Source: a virus
Virus record (IMG/VR): IMGVR_UViG_3300030098_006174
Span: 1-34,777 of that record
Length of the DNA stretch: 34,777 bases
Strand: one strand, 5' to 3'
The stretch's first letter is position 1, and the number at the start of each line of letters is the position of its first letter. Positions 5,874-16,119 of the stretch are shown here, in pieces. The notes under the pieces are model-generated. The model saw only the letters and a program-made list of their open reading frames with translations, made no database searches and was not told the DNA's origin. Both the position numbers and the translations under genes were made by a program.

Positions 5874-5992
5874 TAAGATGTTCCCAATGTGGTTCATTGT
5901 TGGACAAAAAAGCTAGAATGAATAAGATATTTAGTGATGCTGATTTAGCTCTGGATAGATTTTATAATAGAATGAGGAAGAAGGGAAAATGA
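5846..5992 (+). CDS. Small basic zinc-binding protein, 48 aa
   Basis: ATG at 5846 overlaps the previous gene by 28 bases. The product starts MAEKNRKRIIRCSQCGSLLD, giving one CxxC knuckle followed by a basic helix (FYNRMRKKGK). A single CxxC needs a second ligand pair from a dimer or partner. Its stop overlaps the ATG of the XRE-sigma4 gene in ATGA, so the two are likely translationally coupled. An accessory of that regulator is possible but unproven. Confidence 0.55.
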   Translation: MAEKNRKRIIRCSQCGSLLDKKARMNKIFSDADLALDRFYNRMRKKGK

Positions 5993-6666
5993 TTAGAACA
6001 GAGATAAGATTTAAAAATTCAGTATTTATTAAGGCTTTAGAAGAAAGTAAATATAATTCAATATCCGAATTTTCAAGGGTATCTGGAATAGGGTATAGTA
6101 GGCTTATAGAATATGCCAATTTAAGATACTCATTTAAAAATCCTGAAGAACAGGTTAAAATTGCAAGATTGTTAAATGTTGAGATATTTGATTTATTTGA
6201 ACAATACGATGAAGTTATCCATAAAAATAAAGGAATGGTTCGTAAATTAACAACAGATATTCCTATTGACAAGGTGCTATCGTTGTCTTCAGATAAAATG
6301 TTGCAAATAGAATCGGATTATAATACTGATAATATTGACGATGAAATATCAATTCAAAAAGAAGTTAAAGACGCACTAGACACATTAAAGGAACGTGAAA
6401 AAGATGTTATAAAAATGCACTTTGGCATAGGAGGTGAAACTCCTCTTGCTTTAAGCGAAATAGCAGAAAGGTTTAAGTTGACAAAAGAAAGAACTAGACA
6501 AATATTAGCAAAGGGTATTAGGCGACTTAGGCATAGGAGTAGAAATGCAAAACTCAAGCCTTTTGCAATAATATCTCCAACAGCAGAAAACAATTCAGGT
6601 TACTGTAGAAAGTATGCAAGAGAACTTGAATCAGAGAGAAAAAAACACGATAAGGAGAATAGATGA
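5989..6666 (+). CDS. XRE-like HTH fused to sigma-70 region 4, putative transcription regulator
   Basis: Residues about 20-70 form an XRE-like HTH (NSISEFSRVSGIGYSRLIEY, then EEQVKIARLLNVEIFDLF). A linker of about 50 residues leads to a clear sigma region 4 at about 126-183: DALDTLKEREKDVIKMHFG, then TPLALSEIAERFKLTKERTR and QILAKGIRRLRH, close to the RpoD C-terminal block. Region 2, needed for -10 recognition and melting, is absent, so it cannot be a complete sigma factor. Sigma4 binds -35 DNA and the RNA polymerase beta flap, so this protein could retarget host polymerase. A basic tail of about 40 residues follows. It lies mid-genome among middle genes, where a switch to late genes would be made. 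Confidence 0.8.
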   Translation: MIRTEIRFKNSVFIKALEESKYNSISEFSRVSGIGYSRLIEYANLRYSFKNPEEQVKIARLLNVEIFDLFEQYDEVIHKNKGMVRKLTTDIPIDKVLSLSSDKMLQIESDYNTDNIDDEISIQKEVKDALDTLKEREKDVIKMHFGIGGETPLALSEIAERFKLTKERTRQILAKGIRRLRHRSRNAKLKPFAIISPTAENNSGYCRKYARELESERKKHDKENR

Positions 6667-7576: not shown

Positions 7577-8779
7577 CTACCAAGTTTCAATAATTTTTAC
7601 AGATATATCGTAGACAGAATTGGCTACTTGAGAAATTCTTAATGATTTCTGGTCAAACCTTGCGATGCAAAATTGGTCTGGATTATTATTAGTATTATCA
7701 GGTTGGAATATAAAAGATAATGCACCTCCTAAAGTTTTCTGCCACACCAACGACATAAATGAATTATCACTATCAATAGTATAATTAAACATAGTCTTAT
7801 TAGCATCTAAATCAGCATCATCATATCCTGTACTTGTTTCTAAATGTGTTGTTTGCATATAGTTTGATGCAAATAAATCCTTATCTGATATGTATCTAAA
7901 TTTAAGATTCCAAACTCTTCTTCCGTTTCTTCTATATCCACCTTGACTGAATTGAGAATCATCATCACCTGAACCAACTGTTCCAACTTGAAATGGAGCA
8001 TATTTATTTCCATCCTCATCAACCCACCATGGAGAGCCTTGGTATCTTATATTTGTAAGTGTAGAACCACCTTTAGTTGTTACTGTGTCATATCCATCAT
8101 ATTCAACATCCATAGTCAACTTTAAGTCAGGAGAATGAGGCATATCATAATATATTCCTGTTGATAATCCTCCAATAGCAAAGCCATCAAATTCAAATTG
8201 AGGGTCAGTATCGTGATTGCTAACAACTAGTCTTGAATAACATATATTGTTATTATCTGGAGCAAAATGTGCGGCAGTTGATGCAATCCCAATGATAGTG
8301 AATCCATTTTCATGACTTGAAGGGCTAGAATTAACAATCATTGTTTCAGCTCCAGTTACGGTTGTAGCAGTCCAAGTTGAATCTATTAATGTTTGATTTT
8401 TCATTTCAGGAATCATTCTATCAACTTTTCCTTCAGAATTATGATTTAGAATAGCCCAATATCTACCAATATTATCCCCCTCTAATCCTGCCCCACTACA
8501 AGGAACATCCATAATAAAATAAGAGGGGTCAAGTCCAGTAAAACCCATGTTTTTTTGTTTAGATGGTTCTAATGTAAATATATCAGGATGGGTTATATAT
8601 GAAGTCCACATATCACCAAAAGCAGTTGTAACTCCATATCCATTACCATCACCATTACCCTCATTCATGTCTGTATAGTAAGTATTGTTATAATGTGATA
8701 TGAAATCAAAGTTTGTTGCTTTTAAATATTGTATATGGTCTACATAAAATCTTGGTGTTCCTACATTTTGATATGCCAT
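7577..8779 (-). CDS. Structural protein, probably tail-associated, 400 aa
   Basis: This is the last gene of the minus-strand structural run, directly after two tail proteins. The product begins MAYQNVGTPRFYVD, is rich in Asn, Asp, Ser, Tyr and Trp, and has no signal peptide or membrane segment, as expected of a beta-rich virion protein. It contains GYRRNGRRVWNLKF and ends with SVYDISVKIIETW. Proteins with this position are often tail-tip or fibre-associated; I cannot assign the family. The ATG is preceded by AGGAAAAAATACTA and overlaps the upstream gene's stop. Confidence 0.65.
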   Translation of the reverse strand: MAYQNVGTPRFYVDHIQYLKATNFDFISHYNNTYYTDMNEGNGDGNGYGVTTAFGDMWTSYITHPDIFTLEPSKQKNMGFTGLDPSYFIMDVPCSGAGLEGDNIGRYWAILNHNSEGKVDRMIPEMKNQTLIDSTWTATTVTGAETMIVNSSPSSHENGFTIIGIASTAAHFAPDNNNICYSRLVVSNHDTDPQFEFDGFAIGGLSTGIYYDMPHSPDLKLTMDVEYDGYDTVTTKGGSTLTNIRYQGSPWWVDEDGNKYAPFQVGTVGSGDDDSQFSQGGYRRNGRRVWNLKFRYISDKDLFASNYMQTTHLETSTGYDDADLDANKTMFNYTIDSDNSFMSLVWQKTLGGALSFIFQPDNTNNNPDQFCIARFDQKSLRISQVANSVYDISVKIIETW

Positions 8780-9603
8780 TAGTATTTTTTCCTTTCTACT
8801 TCAATTCTTTCCTCTGGTGAACGCTTAGCTTTTATTTGTGAAACAATCGTTTCTGCTCTCTCTTTAGATTGTAAAATTCTTTTTTCAATAGGTCTATCCC
8901 CTACTTCTATAGACCTATCTACTTGTTGTGTTTCAGATACTCTATTTAGGACTGTATTAATCTTTTTTTCAAATGTCTTGCTTTTGCTTTGAACTTTCGT
9001 TTTATATAAAGGTATAGAGTTTGCATTTGGAACTTTACCAGAAAGATACACTCTTTCTTTTGGATGGTAATTATAATAACCTGTATAACCATCTTTAAAT
9101 GGAGTACTTGTGTATAGACCTACGACTGTATCATCATCTATATAACTCCTTTTTAATCTCTGCTTAGTAAAGCCAGATGATGGCTGAATGACCAATGTAT
9201 CATCTTCAAGCTTTGTATCACTTCTGCCTATTAATTGGTCTTTATCAATATTAGTTATTGTTGCTTTAAATCTACTACCATTAAAACAATAAATCTTACA
9301 ACTTGTAATCTCAAAATCTCCAGAGGTTCTAAAAAGAAGCCCATCGTCTAGTAGTCTTCTCATGTTTATATTTCTAATTCTTATAGTGTTTTTATTTAAT
9401 TTAATGCTATATCCTTCAGGTAAATTATTATGTATGCCTATAAGCCCTCTATACTTCATTACGATAATTCTTACAACCCCCTGAGTTTTCAATATTACAT
9501 CATTATCTATAATATCTAAACTTGCACTCGTTGGAGATTCAACAAGGCTATTAAATATAAGATTGTTTAATTTTATTAATTTTTGTCTTTTTGTAAAATT
9601 CAT
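8779..9603 (-). CDS. Structural/tail-associated protein with basic C-terminal helices, 274 aa
   Basis: Residues 1-200 look beta-rich (TQGVVRIIVMKYRGLIGIHNN, KNTIRIRNINMRRLL). Residues about 200-274 are strongly charged and probably helical, including VQSKSKTFEKKINTVLNRV and RILQSKERAETIVSQIKAK. It sits between the large tip protein and the last structural gene and shares one base with the latter. A tail assembly or tip role is inferred from position; no family is recognised. Confidence 0.6.
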   Translation of the reverse strand: MNFTKRQKLIKLNNLIFNSLVESPTSASLDIIDNDVILKTQGVVRIIVMKYRGLIGIHNNLPEGYSIKLNKNTIRIRNINMRRLLDDGLLFRTSGDFEITSCKIYCFNGSRFKATITNIDKDQLIGRSDTKLEDDTLVIQPSSGFTKQRLKRSYIDDDTVVGLYTSTPFKDGYTGYYNYHPKERVYLSGKVPNANSIPLYKTKVQSKSKTFEKKINTVLNRVSETQQVDRSIEVGDRPIEKRILQSKERAETIVSQIKAKRSPEERIEVERKKY

Positions 9604-9604
9604 A

Positions 9605-12600
9605 TTATTGGTCTAATATTAAGTTAACTAATGCGATAATATCAACAACATTTATAGTTCCGTCAGCGTTTAAATCTGCAGCTGCAAGACTTCCCTCTGT
9701 TAATGTTGTAGTCCCTAATACATGGTTTACCAATGAAACTATATCAACAATATTTAAAAGGCTATCATCATTAATATCTCCACCTGTTATATCACTTGTG
9801 TTAGGAATTACGCCCCCTATAAGTGAAATCAAATCTTCATCTGTTATATACCCATTACCAGTTAAATCAGAAACTCGTCTTTGTTCTGCTGTGAAATATT
9901 TTTCAAACCCAAGCAAGAAGTCCTCAAGTATATTATAATTATCTATAGAAATATCAGCAGAGCTGTTTGCATCTAAATCAGTAACATCTTCTCCAACTCC
10001 AAAGAGTCTTTGTATACTTCCCATTTGGCAGGTAAATGGTTTAGATAAGCTGTGTAATTGAATAACTTTAACTTGAATATCTTTTTCTCTTTTAGAAATA
10101 GACTCTATAAGAAAATAGGGATATATCTCTTGCATATTCCTCAAGACTACTCCGCTTGTATAATCTTCCCCATACGCCTTATGACCATCTATTAGTTCAT
10201 CAAAATTAACAATATCTCCAACTTCTAACATGCAATATTTTAAAGGCAACCTTAAATCAAACCTTGTATGCTGATTGCAATGCCATAAATACAAGAAATT
10301 TCTTAATTGTTCTGCTGCATTTTTGTCTGTTATATATTTACTTTCAAACTCCAAAACTTTGTCTTCTCTTTCAATTCCTAAAGATTCATAGCTATAACCA
10401 TCAAACCCTTCATCCAGTCTTGACGGATGGTCGCCATTCCCAAAACAATCATATCCATCTATATAGCCTGTTTGTCTTGTGTATTCATCACTTGCGTAGT
10501 CATATTTATATTTAACATTAACAAGGGTATTTATTTCTGAAATTGGAGTTCTTGAAAAACTATAAGATATAATATCTTTGTTTTTTATAGTCATATTAAC
10601 ATCTGATAAGCCATAACTACTATTAAGTGCTACAAACCCAAATTTAGAATTATTGTTAAATTTTGGGATAATGTTACTTGATTTAGACATTTCTTGAAAT
10701 AAAGCTTTGGCATCCATTTCTTCTTTAACACTAAAAGAAAAACCAGGAGTGCTTGGAATAATTTGACTTCTAGCTTTTGCTATGCTATCATAATCCATAT
10801 TATCTATAACATTCAATTCTTTTTCTAAAATATGAAAGATAATATCAGTAGGTCTAGTTATAGGGTCATGAGAACTGCTTAAGCTATTTCCAGTATATTT
10901 AAAAAACTGATTATTATTTTCAACTGTTAAATTTACCCTTCCCTCAACAGACATATAAAAGTCTGATTCTAATGCTTTTTCAAATTGAGTATAGTGCACG
11001 ATTGAAGCATTGTAAATATTCATGTCAAATACAGCAACTTCATCATCTAGCTGGTCTGATACATTCTCGTTGTCAACTCTTAAAGACAAGTTTAAAGCAT
11101 TGTAATTATCAGTTGTATGAAATTGAGGAATCCTTAAATCTAAGAAAGAATTTTCTCCACCTGGAAATAAGTTGCCATCTTGTCCATTATCACCTGGAGC
11201 TGTGCTGAATGTGATATTTCCAAGAGATATGCACTCTGATAAAGTTTTACTAACTAATTCATTCCTACTTTGGTCTAAAGTTTGCCAGTCAAATTCAGCG
11301 TCATCCTCTACTTCAGAATTTTTAGTATCAACAGCTCCAATAGCAGCTATAAATTTAGCTGTTCCTATGTTTGAGGTTGCCTCTGTGTCAAAATTTATTT
11401 CAAATTTACCTTGAAAAAATGAATCTGTTTTTATTTCATTTTCAATCTCTAGCTCTCTTAATGGAAAAGCCAAGTTAAGTCTTTGGTCTAATATAGGATT
11501 AACCCCATCTTCTGTATAAAAATCTGGATGTCCGTCATGTAAAGTTATAGTATCTCTGTCAAGCACTTGAGCTTGTGATATAACAAAGTCTTGTCCTGTA
11601 TATCTTACATTTGTGTTTCCATCCCCCTTTTGAACTTTATGCTTACATGGTATTATTGTTCCTTTTGGAATTGATAATTTTGTATTTAAAGGTATTGTTA
11701 CCTCTGGGAAAAAATCATCATTCTCAGGATTGTCAGCGGGGTCATCATTTAATTGTCCTAAATCGCCTCCAGTCTGTGAAATAGAATTTCCTTTTATCCA
11801 TATAGCCCAAGACTTATTGGTATCTGTATACATTTCATCTTCTTTAACAGAAAATCCATCTATCGAGTGTAAAGCCCATCCTCCGAAATATTCTTTATCT
11901 GAGGTTATATTAGAGAAACCATGAACATCTAATTCATGTTCGCCTATTGTCCTTCCATTCCAAGCAGTTCTGTATATAAGTCTGCATTGCCAGGAATATT
12001 GTCCAGGATGACCCTTCCAAACCAAATCTATAGGGGCATATTGAGCATCAAGAGAATCGTTAAAAAGAGCCGATGCAGGACTGTCATCTGTTGGAAAAAT
12101 ATCATAATATATAGCATTTTCTTGGGGGTCATAACCATCAGCTCCTGGCGGATAAGTGCCATCATCCCCTGTTGTATTACAATAACCCCCAACTCCAAAA
12201 CCATCTGGCATAGCATCCGTTAATTGACTAACACAAAAAAATGAAGCTCCCAGCCCAGGTTCTTCCCCTTCAGGTTTTCTAAATTCTTGAGCTAATGTGA
12301 ATCTATAAAAAGTTGCTTGAGGGTATTTTACACTTTGAAAATCTGTATTTGTTGCCCATGTAGACCCTGATTGAAGAATTTCATATCCAGGGGTATTTCT
12401 AGGTTGATTTCCTAAAAAGTTAATAGGGTCAGTCATAATACTACCTGCTGAATCTTCTACAGCCCAATATTCTGAAGCATCTCCATCAGGTGTTTCAATT
12501 TTAGACCCCCATCCACTTATATGATTAGGGCATATATTTACAAATGAATTCATTCTATTCCCGTATGGGTCTTGAGGGTTACTTTCAAATATATTAAGAG

Positions 12601-14050
12601 CTATAGCTTCTTCGTATGTATATCCATATAAGTTAATTAATCGAGTTACCATTTTAGCTTTTGCCATGTTTAAAACTCTGGATGCGTTAGGCATTTCTAT
12701 GTATACAACATTAGGTTCTTCAATAGATAAATCAATTCCAGCGTTAAGAACATTCATGTTCCTTGTTAACCAACTATGAACTTCATATTGATAATAACCT
12801 GGGTAAAATTCATCGTTTTCCAATCTATTAAATACTCCATGAACCCAAGGGGCTTCCCTGTGAGGTTGAAACCAAGGGATAATAGTGTAATCTCCAATAA
12901 TATCCAATTCACTAGAATCAGGGTCTGGAATTTGAGCATAAGAAGGAGGCGAATAAGGGTCTATCTCTTGAGCATTAGGAACAGTATAAATATCTTGCAT
13001 TAGTGCTAAGTTATTATCAACAGCAAGCTGAGGATTCAATATAGAAGCTTCAAGATTGTAAATTATATTTTCTCCAGAGTCATCTAAGCTGTATCCTATT
13101 TCAGGATTAGACATGTTTACTAAAGACATTGGTGTTCTTAATTTAACACATTGAAGTTCATTAAAAGCAGGAGGATTAAGAGGAAAAACACCTTGAAATA
13201 CTCTAGGTATTTCTATTTTTCCTGGGTCAGAAAGTAAATACTGTGTAGTGTTTCCCCATTGCCAATCCTCAACATCTTCAACATCCCCTATAACAGAATT
13301 ATTAAATTCTTCAAGAACATTATAGTAATCTCCATTATAAATATATAAAGGATTAGTCCCTGTGGAAATTCCATCATTGATTTCATCTCCCCCTATAAAT
13401 GTATTTAAAACTATATTTCTATCGCTATCAATAACATCATCTGCTATAACGAAATTTTTTATTTCAGAATCTGCATCAGAGTTATCTGTCAATATTAATG
13501 TCGGAGCTTTTTCAACATAACCATAAACCATTGGAATAGAAGCATTAATATCCTTTGTTCTATATGCTCTATTTTTTGATACTACTTTAGCATAAGGAAC
13601 TTTTTTATCTAATTTATCTAAAGTTCTATCCTCTACAACCATTGCAACTTTACTTGAATCATGACTTAGACTTTTAACAGTACCTGCGTATACCAACAGA
13701 GAATCTTCTAAAGTGTAAGTTGCAGAAGTATAATATATTGAAACTTCTTTATTTATAATGTCTTTGTCAATTATATAATCAGTAAAAGACATCCCATCTT
13801 TAAAATCAGGATTTCTAAATGTTATGTTGACATTTGAGGTTTTAAAATGCCTATTGTTTATATCAATAGATTCTCTTATGTTGGAAATTCTTAAATCGCA
13901 ATCTTTCTGATTATCAGAATCTACTTTGTCTTCTTGGAAGGCTGCTATATGTGGAGATATTCCATCTATAACAACTAATGGGTATAATGAAGTGAAATTA
14001 TAACCAGAGTCTATTACATCGAGCTTAAATCTATCAGGTAGCTCTATCAT
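9605..14050 (-). CDS. Large tail tip/hub protein with C-terminal dockerin-like repeats, 1481 aa
   Basis: It follows the tape measure gene directly, where tail tip or central hub proteins are encoded. The N-terminal 170 residues have a hub-like beta pattern (RHFKTSNVNITFRNPDF, EDSLLVYAGTVKSL). Residues about 1150-1350 resemble the conserved core of phage tip proteins, including LEVGDIVNF and VVLRNMQEIYPYF. The last 120 residues carry three clear 12-residue calcium loops of dockerin type: DLTGNGYITDED, DINDDSLLNIVD (followed by IVSLVNHVLG) and DLNADGTINVVD (followed by IIALVNLIL), plus a degenerate one before them. Dockerins bind cohesins or act as stabilising calcium modules. A tail protein with this ending is unusual. 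Confidence 0.8.
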   Translation of the reverse strand: MIELPDRFKLDVIDSGYNFTSLYPLVVIDGISPHIAAFQEDKVDSDNQKDCDLRISNIRESIDINNRHFKTSNVNITFRNPDFKDGMSFTDYIIDKDIINKEVSIYYTSATYTLEDSLLVYAGTVKSLSHDSSKVAMVVEDRTLDKLDKKVPYAKVVSKNRAYRTKDINASIPMVYGYVEKAPTLILTDNSDADSEIKNFVIADDVIDSDRNIVLNTFIGGDEINDGISTGTNPLYIYNGDYYNVLEEFNNSVIGDVEDVEDWQWGNTTQYLLSDPGKIEIPRVFQGVFPLNPPAFNELQCVKLRTPMSLVNMSNPEIGYSLDDSGENIIYNLEASILNPQLAVDNNLALMQDIYTVPNAQEIDPYSPPSYAQIPDPDSSELDIIGDYTIIPWFQPHREAPWVHGVFNRLENDEFYPGYYQYEVHSWLTRNMNVLNAGIDLSIEEPNVVYIEMPNASRVLNMAKAKMVTRLINLYGYTYEEAIALNIFESNPQDPYGNRMNSFVNICPNHISGWGSKIETPDGDASEYWAVEDSAGSIMTDPINFLGNQPRNTPGYEILQSGSTWATNTDFQSVKYPQATFYRFTLAQEFRKPEGEEPGLGASFFCVSQLTDAMPDGFGVGGYCNTTGDDGTYPPGADGYDPQENAIYYDIFPTDDSPASALFNDSLDAQYAPIDLVWKGHPGQYSWQCRLIYRTAWNGRTIGEHELDVHGFSNITSDKEYFGGWALHSIDGFSVKEDEMYTDTNKSWAIWIKGNSISQTGGDLGQLNDDPADNPENDDFFPEVTIPLNTKLSIPKGTIIPCKHKVQKGDGNTNVRYTGQDFVISQAQVLDRDTITLHDGHPDFYTEDGVNPILDQRLNLAFPLRELEIENEIKTDSFFQGKFEINFDTEATSNIGTAKFIAAIGAVDTKNSEVEDDAEFDWQTLDQSRNELVSKTLSECISLGNITFSTAPGDNGQDGNLFPGGENSFLDLRIPQFHTTDNYNALNLSLRVDNENVSDQLDDEVAVFDMNIYNASIVHYTQFEKALESDFYMSVEGRVNLTVENNNQFFKYTGNSLSSSHDPITRPTDIIFHILEKELNVIDNMDYDSIAKARSQIIPSTPGFSFSVKEEMDAKALFQEMSKSSNIIPKFNNNSKFGFVALNSSYGLSDVNMTIKNKDIISYSFSRTPISEINTLVNVKYKYDYASDEYTRQTGYIDGYDCFGNGDHPSRLDEGFDGYSYESLGIEREDKVLEFESKYITDKNAAEQLRNFLYLWHCNQHTRFDLRLPLKYCMLEVGDIVNFDELIDGHKAYGEDYTSGVVLRNMQEIYPYFLIESISKREKDIQVKVIQLHSLSKPFTCQMGSIQRLFGVGEDVTDLDANSSADISIDNYNILEDFLLGFEKYFTAEQRRVSDLTGNGYITDEDLISLIGGVIPNTSDITGGDINDDSLLNIVDIVSLVNHVLGTTTLTEGSLAAADLNADGTINVVDIIALVNLILDQ

Positions 14051-16119
14051 TAACTAATTCCTATATCTTCTCCTCTACGGAGAGCTTCTTTAATTTTTGG
14101 GATAGCTTCATCAACAATAAAGTCTTCAGATAAGACATTACCTTCAAATACAATATTTACATTGCTGCTTCCACCACCTTGATTAATTCTATTTAATGTT
14201 TCTATACCAACAGATTCAACACCTTGTCTACTTACAACAAACTCACCTGCTTCAGCTTCTATCATAGTTCCACCTTGAGAATGTCTTCTGCCTCCAATAA
14301 GTCCACCTTGTTCCATCCTAGGAGGTTTTTGAGATGCTATCATCGCAATTTGTGCAGCCCCTAACGCTTTAAAGAAAGGAATCCAACCAGCTCCAAATAT
14401 ACCTGTTTGTGCCTGTGCTTTCATTATAGCCGCAGCAGTATCCTGAACAACACTAGCTATATTCAATGCTTGTTCCATTCTAAAGGCTGCAACTCTTATT
14501 TTGTTAGCTTTTGCTCTTTCAGCCGCTTTCTTTTTTTCAGCTCTATCTCTTATTTTTTCTTCTTCTTTAGCCTGTTGAAATGCACTTAGCTTTTGGAATC
14601 TTCTACTCTTTTTAAGAGTATTTATATCATGATTCATCACTTTGTCTATGGCTGCTATTCTCTTATTTGCAGAAGCTTCAGCCATTCCTGCAATTTGCCC
14701 AAAAACATTTGCAACCTCTTGTGCCATTTGCTGATAACTATCTATAGTTTCTGTTGTAATCTGTGTTTCTAATACATGCTGTTGTCTTAACAAGTCAAAG
14801 TATCGAGTCCTTTCTTTTGCTGTTAAGCCTATAGCATCTGCTTTCTTAGCTTCTAATTCTGCTAATTCAAACTCAACCCCTATAAGTTGCAATGAAGCCC
14901 CACTAACCCCTTGCAAAGTTGCTTGATATAATCTAAAAGCTTTTTCATTAGCAATAACATCTGCCATTGTATCATCAGCAGCCCCTCCAAGGTCTTCTAA
15001 TGATTTTTTAGTAGCATCTATTTCTTTTTGAAGGTCGCTAAGGTCATCTCCAAATATATTAGTATGCCTAGATAGAAGCTCTACAGCAGCGACAGCAGCT
15101 AACATAACTAGAAGCATAACCTTATTTGCTTTTATAAATGCTAAGGTAGCTTTAGATGCAGCTGTAACTGCTCCTGAGAAAACAACATAGGTAGTCGCAA
15201 CTGCTGCTACAGCTGTTCCATAAGCTCTCATTCTTTCAGAGTCTAAATGTTCAGATAAAAATATTACAGAATTAGCTAAAAGTCTAACAACAGGCTCTAA
15301 AGCTTCCCCTAATTCAACTCTCATATTAGCAGCAGAAGCCTCCATAGCCTCTATTTTTTGTTGAGTGCTTATATATTCATCACCCAATTCATCAACCATT
15401 TGCTTTGATATTCTTAAAACTTCTTGGTTGAAAGCTTCTTTCTTTTGTGCATCTGTTAAAGAATTAGCAGATAAATCTAATTTATCAGCATATCTATCAT
15501 AAGCATCTTGAGATTTTACTACAATTCCCAAATTATCTAACATGAGTTTTGATTGTCTTCCCATACCAGTAACAAGAGATTCTATCGATTTTACTGTATC
15601 TACGCCTAAAGCTTGTCCTAATCTTTGTGCTGTATCAAATAATTGTGCCATTTCATCATCAGATTTAACAACGCCAAGCATTACAGCATTATTTGATTGC
15701 TTCATCAACTCAAAATTATTAACAGTATTATTAGTTGCTGCTTTAAGCTTATCTAAAGATTCAGCACTTCCTCCAATAGAACGGGAAAGACTGTCAAATC
15801 CTCTGGCAACACCTTCTGTTTTAGCAAATTCTTTGGTTAAATCTATAAGCCCTTTTGTTATAAGACCCATAGCAAATGAGGCTAGAAGCATTTTAGACCT
15901 GAGTGTAGCAAATGAATTTGATTGAAGACGATTGGTTGTTGTTGTAAACATGCCAGTCTTATTGTATGCCATTCCAGCTTTTGTTGCTTGTTTTTGAGCT
16001 GTAACAAAGGCTTTTTGCCCTTTAGTAAGCTTTACATTGGCTAGATGGAGGTCTTCAAGGGTTTTTTTAAGTGCTCCTGCACCTTTAGCACTAAATTGTA
16101 TGGTTAATTTTTCAGCCAT
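14050..16119 (-). CDS. Tape measure protein, 689 aa
   Basis: Features of the family are present: MAEKLTIQFSAKGAGALKKTL start, long helical regions, hydrophobic segments around residues 75-100 and 300-345 (AVAAVATTYVVFSGAVTAAS, MLLVMLAAVAAVELL), and a Lys/Glu/Ala coiled-coil stretch near 500-560. The C-terminus has GGLIGGRRHSQGG and AEAGEFVVSR, typical of phage tape measures. It sets tail length; by the usual proportionality 689 residues suggests a tail near 100 nm (inference). It sits between the chaperone genes and the tip protein, the standard order, and shares its terminal base with both neighbours. Confidence 0.9.
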   Translation of the reverse strand: MAEKLTIQFSAKGAGALKKTLEDLHLANVKLTKGQKAFVTAQKQATKAGMAYNKTGMFTTTTNRLQSNSFATLRSKMLLASFAMGLITKGLIDLTKEFAKTEGVARGFDSLSRSIGGSAESLDKLKAATNNTVNNFELMKQSNNAVMLGVVKSDDEMAQLFDTAQRLGQALGVDTVKSIESLVTGMGRQSKLMLDNLGIVVKSQDAYDRYADKLDLSANSLTDAQKKEAFNQEVLRISKQMVDELGDEYISTQQKIEAMEASAANMRVELGEALEPVVRLLANSVIFLSEHLDSERMRAYGTAVAAVATTYVVFSGAVTAASKATLAFIKANKVMLLVMLAAVAAVELLSRHTNIFGDDLSDLQKEIDATKKSLEDLGGAADDTMADVIANEKAFRLYQATLQGVSGASLQLIGVEFELAELEAKKADAIGLTAKERTRYFDLLRQQHVLETQITTETIDSYQQMAQEVANVFGQIAGMAEASANKRIAAIDKVMNHDINTLKKSRRFQKLSAFQQAKEEEKIRDRAEKKKAAERAKANKIRVAAFRMEQALNIASVVQDTAAAIMKAQAQTGIFGAGWIPFFKALGAAQIAMIASQKPPRMEQGGLIGGRRHSQGGTMIEAEAGEFVVSRQGVESVGIETLNRINQGGGSSNVNIVFEGNVLSEDFIVDEAIPKIKEALRRGEDIGIS

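What the first reader, a model, noticed from the sequence alone, without database searches (positions are those of the whole stretch)
9608..9980. Dockerin-like calcium repeats at the C-terminus of a phage tail tip protein
The last 120 residues hold DLTGNGYITDED, DINDDSLLNIVD and DLNADGTINVVD, each a 12-residue D-x-N/T-x-D/N loop followed by a hydrophobic helix, plus a degenerate fourth. This is the type I dockerin pattern. On a virion tip it could bind a host surface cohesin-like or S-layer protein, or act as a calcium-dependent latch. I cannot tell which.
Basis: partly seen in the sequence, partly recalled or inferred. Interest (0 to 1): 0.75.

Follow-up and report, generated by a model that had tools for sequence, protein, structure and literature searches.

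The report
Phage tail tip carrying host-type dockerin
The tail-tip protein of this uncultured marine phage ends in a calcium-binding 'dockerin' plug of the kind that ocean bacteria of the phylum Neomarinimicrobiota put on the ends of their own secreted proteins, and nearly all its viral relatives do the same, so these phages probably grip their hosts by imitating the bacteria's own protein-docking system.

Summary
The 1,481-residue protein at 9605-14050 (-) ends in a real type I dockerin (PF00404, 36.1 bits, cut-off 22.9; AlphaFold model matches solved dockerins at 0.8 A), preceded by a half-module with one more EF-type loop. The protein is the central tail hub: a full-length relative folds like phage T5 pb3 (Z about 17). 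The dockerin is fixed in this family: 59 of 60 C-termini, nearly all from other uncultured viral contigs, carry it. It is of host type. A degenerate DNA pattern for its repeat, scanned over about 85,000 prokaryote species, hit 22 places, 21 of them in Neomarinimicrobiota/FCB genomes. When 20 kb of phage DNA was compared with 245 Neomarinimicrobiota genomes, 18 of the 27 best hits fell in the dockerin. Those bacteria carry dozens of C-terminal dockerins, plus small cohesin proteins with lipoprotein or type IX surface-attachment signals. Hub homologues in three prophage-like regions of the same phylum stop where the dockerin begins. Best explanation: the dockerin binds a host surface cohesin, with calcium, as an adsorption device. 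Binding itself is inferred. S-layer binding has no support; an internal virion joint is not excluded. I found no published description.

The parts
9605..14050 (-). Central tail hub / tail tip protein, 1,481 aa, directly downstream of the tape measure gene
   Evidence: ORF; full-length relative folds like T5 pb3 and lambda gpJ; synteny
10031..14050 (-). Hub body, residues 1-1340 (with a large insertion against shorter relatives)
   Evidence: Homology with L061 and L062 and 68 viral loci; dockerin-less prophage homologues end at the position of window residue ~1336
9806..9979 (-). First, degenerate module (residues 1358-1415): one EF-type loop DLTGNGYITDED plus a lost loop; kept as a half module in window-like relatives
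   Evidence: Alignment A4; AF2 pLDDT about 73-81; Foldseek top match is a double-dockerin, 8x39/8x3a
9611..9781 (-). Canonical type I dockerin (residues 1424-1480), two Ca-binding loop-helix repeats at the extreme C-terminus
   Evidence: PF00404 36.1 bits; AF2 pLDDT 86-94; 1ohz_B TM 0.91, 0.8 A
9743..9778 (-). Calcium loop 1, DINDDSLLNIVD
   Evidence: Sequence; ligand pattern as in solved dockerins (PMC8063739)
9641..9676 (-). Calcium loop 2, DLNADGTINVVD
   Evidence: Sequence; D columns of both loops invariant in 29 full-length relatives
14050..16119 (-). Tail tape measure protein, upstream neighbour
   Evidence: PHROG 3779, E 2.2e-12
8779..9603 (-). Conserved gene after the hub, 274 aa, function unknown; no cohesin signal
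   Evidence: Same order in L061 and L062; hhalign against host cohesins negative
7577..8779 (-). Conserved gene, 400 aa, function unknown, possibly a further tail protein (position only); no cohesin signal
   Evidence: Same order in L061 and L062; hhalign negative

Best explanation
The C-terminus of the tail hub is a host-type dockerin that works as an adsorption device. By analogy with T5 pb3 the hub should be a trimer closing the tail tube, so three dockerins would sit at the distal end, folded and held by two calcium ions each. They bind a cohesin displayed on the cell surface of a Neomarinimicrobiota host. The best candidates are the ~250-aa protein with signal peptide, cohesin and T9SS sorting domain, and the ~180-aa lipoprotein cohesin. 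The host presumably uses such cohesins to hold its own secreted proteins, which end in the same C-terminal dockerin. The phage dockerin uses that socket as a primary or co-receptor, and the pull on the hub could help open the tube. Shown: dockerin identity and predicted fold, hub fold, conservation across the phage family, host-type sequence, presence of cohesins with surface-attachment signals in candidate hosts. Inferred: trimer, calcium occupancy, host identity, cohesin binding, adsorption role, any trigger role.
For: Dockerin profile and fold. Hub fold, Z about 17 to T5 pb3 over 477 residues, with the same model's last 56 residues matching dockerins at Z 9.4-9.8. 59 of 60 family C-termini carry Dockerin_1. 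Of 81 viral loci picked only for a host-type dockerin repeat, 63 match tail-tip proteins. The repeat pattern over ~85,000 species gives 22 hits, 21 in Neomarinimicrobiota/FCB. 18 of 27 best DNA hits of 20 kb of phage to 245 Neomarinimicrobiota genomes lie in 9608-9980, 1.9% of the query. Dockerin-rich genomes: 56 and 46 domains in 1.6-1.7 Mb. Cohesins: 9 of 9 genomes; lipoprotein cohesin in 61 of 149; T9SS cohesin in 39 of 245, including all nine dockerin-pattern genomes. Same C-terminal geometry in phage and host. Three prophage-like hubs of the same phylum lack the dockerin, in genomes with 0-2 dockerins.
Against: No binding data and no complex model. Host is inferred from dockerin similarity plus distant hub homologues; no CRISPR spacer or host-integrated dockerin-tipped prophage was found. 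Dockerin-less hub homologues sit in GC-rich Neomarinimicrobiota MAGs, not in the low-GC marine clade proposed as host. In T5 receptor binding is done by a separate protein on the central fibre, so a hub C-terminus could instead hold another tail protein. Some dockerin-bearing genomes of the phylum lack a detectable T9SS-type cohesin. Cohesin-dockerin specificity can be narrow.
Confidence: 0.6

Rival explanations
1. Internal joint: the dockerin binds a cohesin-like fold in another virion protein (for example a receptor-binding or fibre protein encoded nearby), so it is an assembly adaptor rather than a receptor binder.
For: In T5 the hub C-terminus joins the next fibre protein (PMC10038345). 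Two conserved genes follow the hub in three genomes. The dockerin is nearly universal in the family, as a structural joint would be.
Against: Neither downstream family resembles host cohesins by profile comparison, and no Cohesin match in the window proteins scanned, though with three-sequence profiles the test is weak. An internal joint does not explain why the dockerin is host-type at protein and DNA level.
Confidence: 0.2
2. Calcium-dependent latch: the EF-type modules fold against the hub and release it on a change in calcium, without a cohesin partner.
For: Complete calcium ligand sets; an extra half module next to the hub in window-like relatives.
Against: Sea water calcium is high and constant (general knowledge). 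The exact host-type helix residues would not need to be kept for a latch.
Confidence: 0.1
3. Anchor to something other than the infected cell: the dockerin attaches virions to shed cohesin scaffolds, vesicles or particles, raising encounter rate rather than acting as receptor binder.
For: Several large host proteins also carry cohesin matches, so cohesins may be on secreted scaffolds as well as on cells.
Against: The position on the hub itself, at the tube opening, suits a step tied to ejection better than general stickiness.
Confidence: 0.08
4. Artefact: a host gene end fused to a phage gene by misassembly, or a chance calcium-loop look-alike.
For: Single uncultured contig; metagenome assembly.
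Against: Same architecture in about 60 other viral contigs; curated profile and fold matches.
Confidence: 0.01

Closest known systems
Type I dockerin of clostridial cellulosomal enzymes (C. thermocellum xylanase Y, PDB 1OHZ/2CCL)
   Same: Two duplicated calcium loop-helix repeats of ~57 residues at the C-terminus; TM 0.86-0.91, rmsd 0.8 A
   Different: On a phage tail hub, not on an enzyme; helix-start recognition positions are V/I-V and V-N rather than the Ser-Thr and Lys-Arg of C. thermocellum (the latter partly from memory; S45/T46 named in the 2CCL title)
Double-dockerin module of C. thermocellum Clo1313_0689 (PDB 8X39, 8X3A)
   Same: Two dockerin-like modules in tandem; best sequence and fold match to the window C-terminus
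   Different: In the phage the first module is degenerate (one usable loop)
Siphophage central tail hub: T5 pb3, lambda gpJ
   Same: Fold of the hub over 477 residues, Z 17.1 to 7zqp_b; gene follows the tape measure
   Different: T5 pb3 ends in two FNIII domains that start the central fibre (PMC10038345); here the end is a dockerin
Proteins auto-named 'Dockerin type 1' in phage assemblies (BFVD A0A8S5M688, A0A8S5NQH0, A0A8S5UCJ3)
   Same: Dockerin fold in phage-encoded proteins
   Different: Proteins of 211-400 residues from myovirus/siphovirus assemblies, not shown to be tail hubs; no functional description found
Unnamed BFVD viral proteins such as A0A516MGL7 (830 aa) and A0A516M0J5 (1,374 aa)
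   Same: Dockerin-like domain matching at 0.6-0.7 A, 41-48% identity; sizes fit this tip family
   Different: Deposited without name or analysis; membership in the tip family not checked

Membership tests
Type I dockerin (PF00404) | Curated profile match above the gathering score | tested here: met
   36.1 bits on the C-terminal 148 aa, 29.1 on the whole protein, cut-off 22.9
Type I dockerin (PF00404) | Two calcium loops with ligands at loop positions 1, 3, 5 and 12 | tested here: met
   DINDDSLLNIVD and DLNADGTINVVD; D columns invariant in 29 relatives. Calcium occupancy not testable
Type I dockerin (PF00404) | Dockerin fold | tested here: met
   AF2 pLDDT 86-94, 1ohz_B TM 0.91 and rmsd 0.8 A
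Type I dockerin (PF00404) | Binds a cohesin | not testable with these tools
   No binding experiment or complex prediction available
Siphophage central tail hub (T5 pb3 / lambda gpJ class) | Hub fold | tested here: met
   L129 relative, pLDDT 80.5; T5 pb3 E 1e-19 and Z 16-17; lambda gpJ Z 14-15. The window protein itself is too long to fold here; it aligns with L129 at about 24%
Siphophage central tail hub (T5 pb3 / lambda gpJ class) | Gene order: tape measure, then hub | tested here: met
   TMP at 14050-16119 abuts the hub at 9605-14050; similar order in prophage-like L189-L191
Siphophage central tail hub (T5 pb3 / lambda gpJ class) | Trimer closing the tube | not testable with these tools
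   Single-chain models only
Cellulosome | Cohesin scaffoldin with carbohydrate-active enzymes and CBM | not tested
   Host cohesins seen are small surface-signal proteins or parts of large proteins; no cellulase or CBM search was made. Not filed as a cellulosome
Receptor-binding protein | Demonstrated binding to a host receptor | not testable with these tools
   Inferred from position, host-type sequence and host cohesins only

The most novel reading that the evidence does not exclude
A widespread group of marine siphophages, with at least one unrelated T4-like phage, infects Neomarinimicrobiota by plugging host-type dockerins into cohesins on the cell surface: a calcium-dependent dockerin-cohesin pair used for phage receptor recognition, with surface cohesins as the receptor class.
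Probability: 0.5. Interest if true: 0.85.

Novelty: new variant of a known kind. Interest (0 to 1): 0.72.

Why it matters
If true, it names a testable receptor class (surface cohesins) for phages of a largely uncultured, abundant ocean phylum. It gives a sequence marker that assigns many orphan viral contigs to a host group, and it adds dockerin-cohesin pairing, so far known mainly from enzyme assembly, to the ways phages hold their hosts. It also suggests that Neomarinimicrobiota use a widespread non-cellulosomal dockerin-cohesin system to keep secreted proteins on the cell.

Tried and rejected
Chance match: rejected. Misassembly: rejected. Single-sequence scans of viral contigs with the C-terminus or body alone found nothing; DNA patterns and then an alignment were needed. 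GenBank phages: two weak dockerin hits, no match to the body or to a consensus dockerin. Phage-encoded cohesin in the two downstream genes: no signal. PHROGs had nothing for the hub, and a sequence profile of the hub region found no PDB relative; only the fold search placed it. Control for the hub profile: 0 of 396 Actinomycetota genomes against 4 of 245 Neomarinimicrobiota, a modest difference from one control phylum. DNA comparison with the host phylum gave no convincing CRISPR-spacer-like match; its best hits were the dockerin itself. The one Acidimicrobiaceae-labelled pattern hit (L019) is on a contig whose genome has only that one dockerin, so it is probably misbinned. Literature searches found no description of a dockerin on a tail hub or of a cohesin as phage receptor; the library holds open-licence papers only. 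One paper fetched by a guessed DOI was irrelevant.

Full report
OBSERVATION. The window is an IMG/VR virus record of 34,777 bases, GC 0.33, with terminase, capsid, neck, tape measure and endolysin genes. The ORF at 9605-14050 on the - strand encodes 1,481 residues. Its last 120 residues hold three EF-type loops, each followed by a hydrophobic helix; shuffles of the same residues average 0.0024 such matches and never reach three. Pfam Dockerin_1 matches residues 1424-1478 well above its cut-off. AlphaFold gives pLDDT 86-94 there, and the model matches C. thermocellum dockerin 1ohz_B at TM 0.91 and 0.8 A; the top match overall is a double-dockerin. The first module is degenerate, with one usable loop.

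WHAT THE PROTEIN IS. The gene follows the tape measure gene directly. A full-length relative (L129, 1,129 aa) was folded from an alignment of 29 members including the window, pLDDT 80.5. Its body matches T5 pb3 (Foldseek E 1e-19; VIA Z 17.1, 477 residues, 3.6 A) and lambda gpJ, while residues 1074-1129 match solved dockerins at Z 9.4-9.8. In T5 the C-terminus of this hub starts the central fibre (PMC10038345); here the dockerin takes that place.

A FAMILY TRAIT. Two other contigs (G001, G002) carry homologous hubs (34% identity over the full length for G001, 36-40% over matched parts for both), also ending in dockerins, with the same two genes downstream. An alignment search found 68 viral loci. 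Of 60 C-termini scanned, counting the window and L061, 59 match Dockerin_1; the exception, L147, stops inside the hub. In the reverse direction, 81 loci selected only by a host-type dockerin repeat gave 63 with tail-tip matches. A few of those 63 are short proteins that may match through dockerin sequence alone, and some contigs overlap the first set.

HOST-TYPE SEQUENCE. A degenerate DNA pattern for the repeat hit 22 places in the genome collection: 19 titled Neomarinimicrobiota, two 'FCB group', one Acidimicrobiaceae; the last is probably misbinned. In those bacteria the dockerin is usually the very end of a long protein. In 19 of 24 host proteins found by profile, the last loop begins 21-25 residues from the end, and 22-26 in 49 of 57 phage proteins. 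As an unselected test, 19.9 kb of phage DNA was compared with 245 Neomarinimicrobiota genomes: 10 of 12 hits at E<=1e-5 and 18 of 27 at E<=1e-4 overlap 9608-9980, which is 1.9% of the query. Hits in related genomes are not independent, so the binomial figure is too optimistic.

HOST COHESINS. PF00963 was found in 9 of 9 of the dockerin-pattern genomes, 7 over cut-off, against 1 of 14 controls over cut-off. Two small proteins look like surface sockets. One is a lipoprotein of ~180 aa, in 61 of 149 genomes; all 20 extracted copies show a lipobox-like cysteine after a hydrophobic leader, and one representative scores 31.8 bits. The other is a ~250-aa protein with signal peptide, cohesin and T9SS type A sorting domain, in 39 of 245 genomes including all nine dockerin-pattern ones. 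PF00404 is over cut-off in 36 of 61 genomes, up to 56 domains in a 1.6 Mb genome.

A NATURAL CONTROL. The hub profile without dockerin hit 4 of 245 Neomarinimicrobiota genomes. The three examined (G112, G120, G087) lie in tail-gene clusters that look like prophages, and their hubs end at the position of window residue ~1336 with no dockerin. The four genomes hold 0, 1, 2 and 0 dockerins. This shows the dockerin to be a separable C-terminal module and fits, in a small sample, with its use where the host has a rich dockerin system. MAG contamination is possible.

MECHANISM. Three hub subunits would present three dockerins at the distal end of the tail. With calcium they bind surface cohesins that the host uses for its own secreted proteins. 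The shown steps are identity, predicted fold, position, conservation and host-type sequence. The inferred steps are trimer, binding, receptor role and host. The main rival is an internal joint to another tail protein: the two downstream families show no cohesin signal, but the test is weak.

NOVELTY. Dockerins, hubs and cohesins are all known. Proteins auto-named 'Dockerin type 1' exist in phage assemblies, and unnamed viral proteins with this domain and of similar size are in structure libraries. I found no paper that describes a dockerin on a tail hub or a cohesin as a phage receptor. I rate it a new variant of a known kind.

Noticed in passing
L063-L065 (G003, IMGVR_UViG_3300020477_001475, 108 kb): A T4-like phage contig (clamp, clamp loader, polymerase-like genes) has four proteins with host-type dockerins, two with a lamin-tail-like N-terminus: a second, apparently unrelated phage lineage with the same module.
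   Followed up: partly
L210, L251: Viral-labelled contigs encode thioredoxin-like proteins with a dockerin followed by a T9SS-like C-terminal sorting sequence, either host contamination or phage-carried secreted proteins.
   Followed up: no
L262, L232, L241, also L234, L240, L265: Proteins on viral contigs with a dockerin and, in some, a shared C-terminal tail (LEENYPQLNT.ERL), L262 after a trypsin-like segment; role unknown.
   Followed up: no
L002:2652-3749: Viral contig encodes a glycoside-hydrolase-like protein ending in a dockerin; a reverse-transcriptase-like gene lies two ORFs upstream, as in diversity-generating elements.
   Followed up: no
window 5989-6666 (+): Protein with an HTH-like N-terminus fused to a sigma-70 region 4 domain, close in motif to primary sigma factors; possible host transcription take-over.
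   Followed up: partly
L043 (G008): A host protein carrying both a cohesin-type domain and a C-terminal dockerin, suggesting chained assembly in Neomarinimicrobiota.
   Followed up: no
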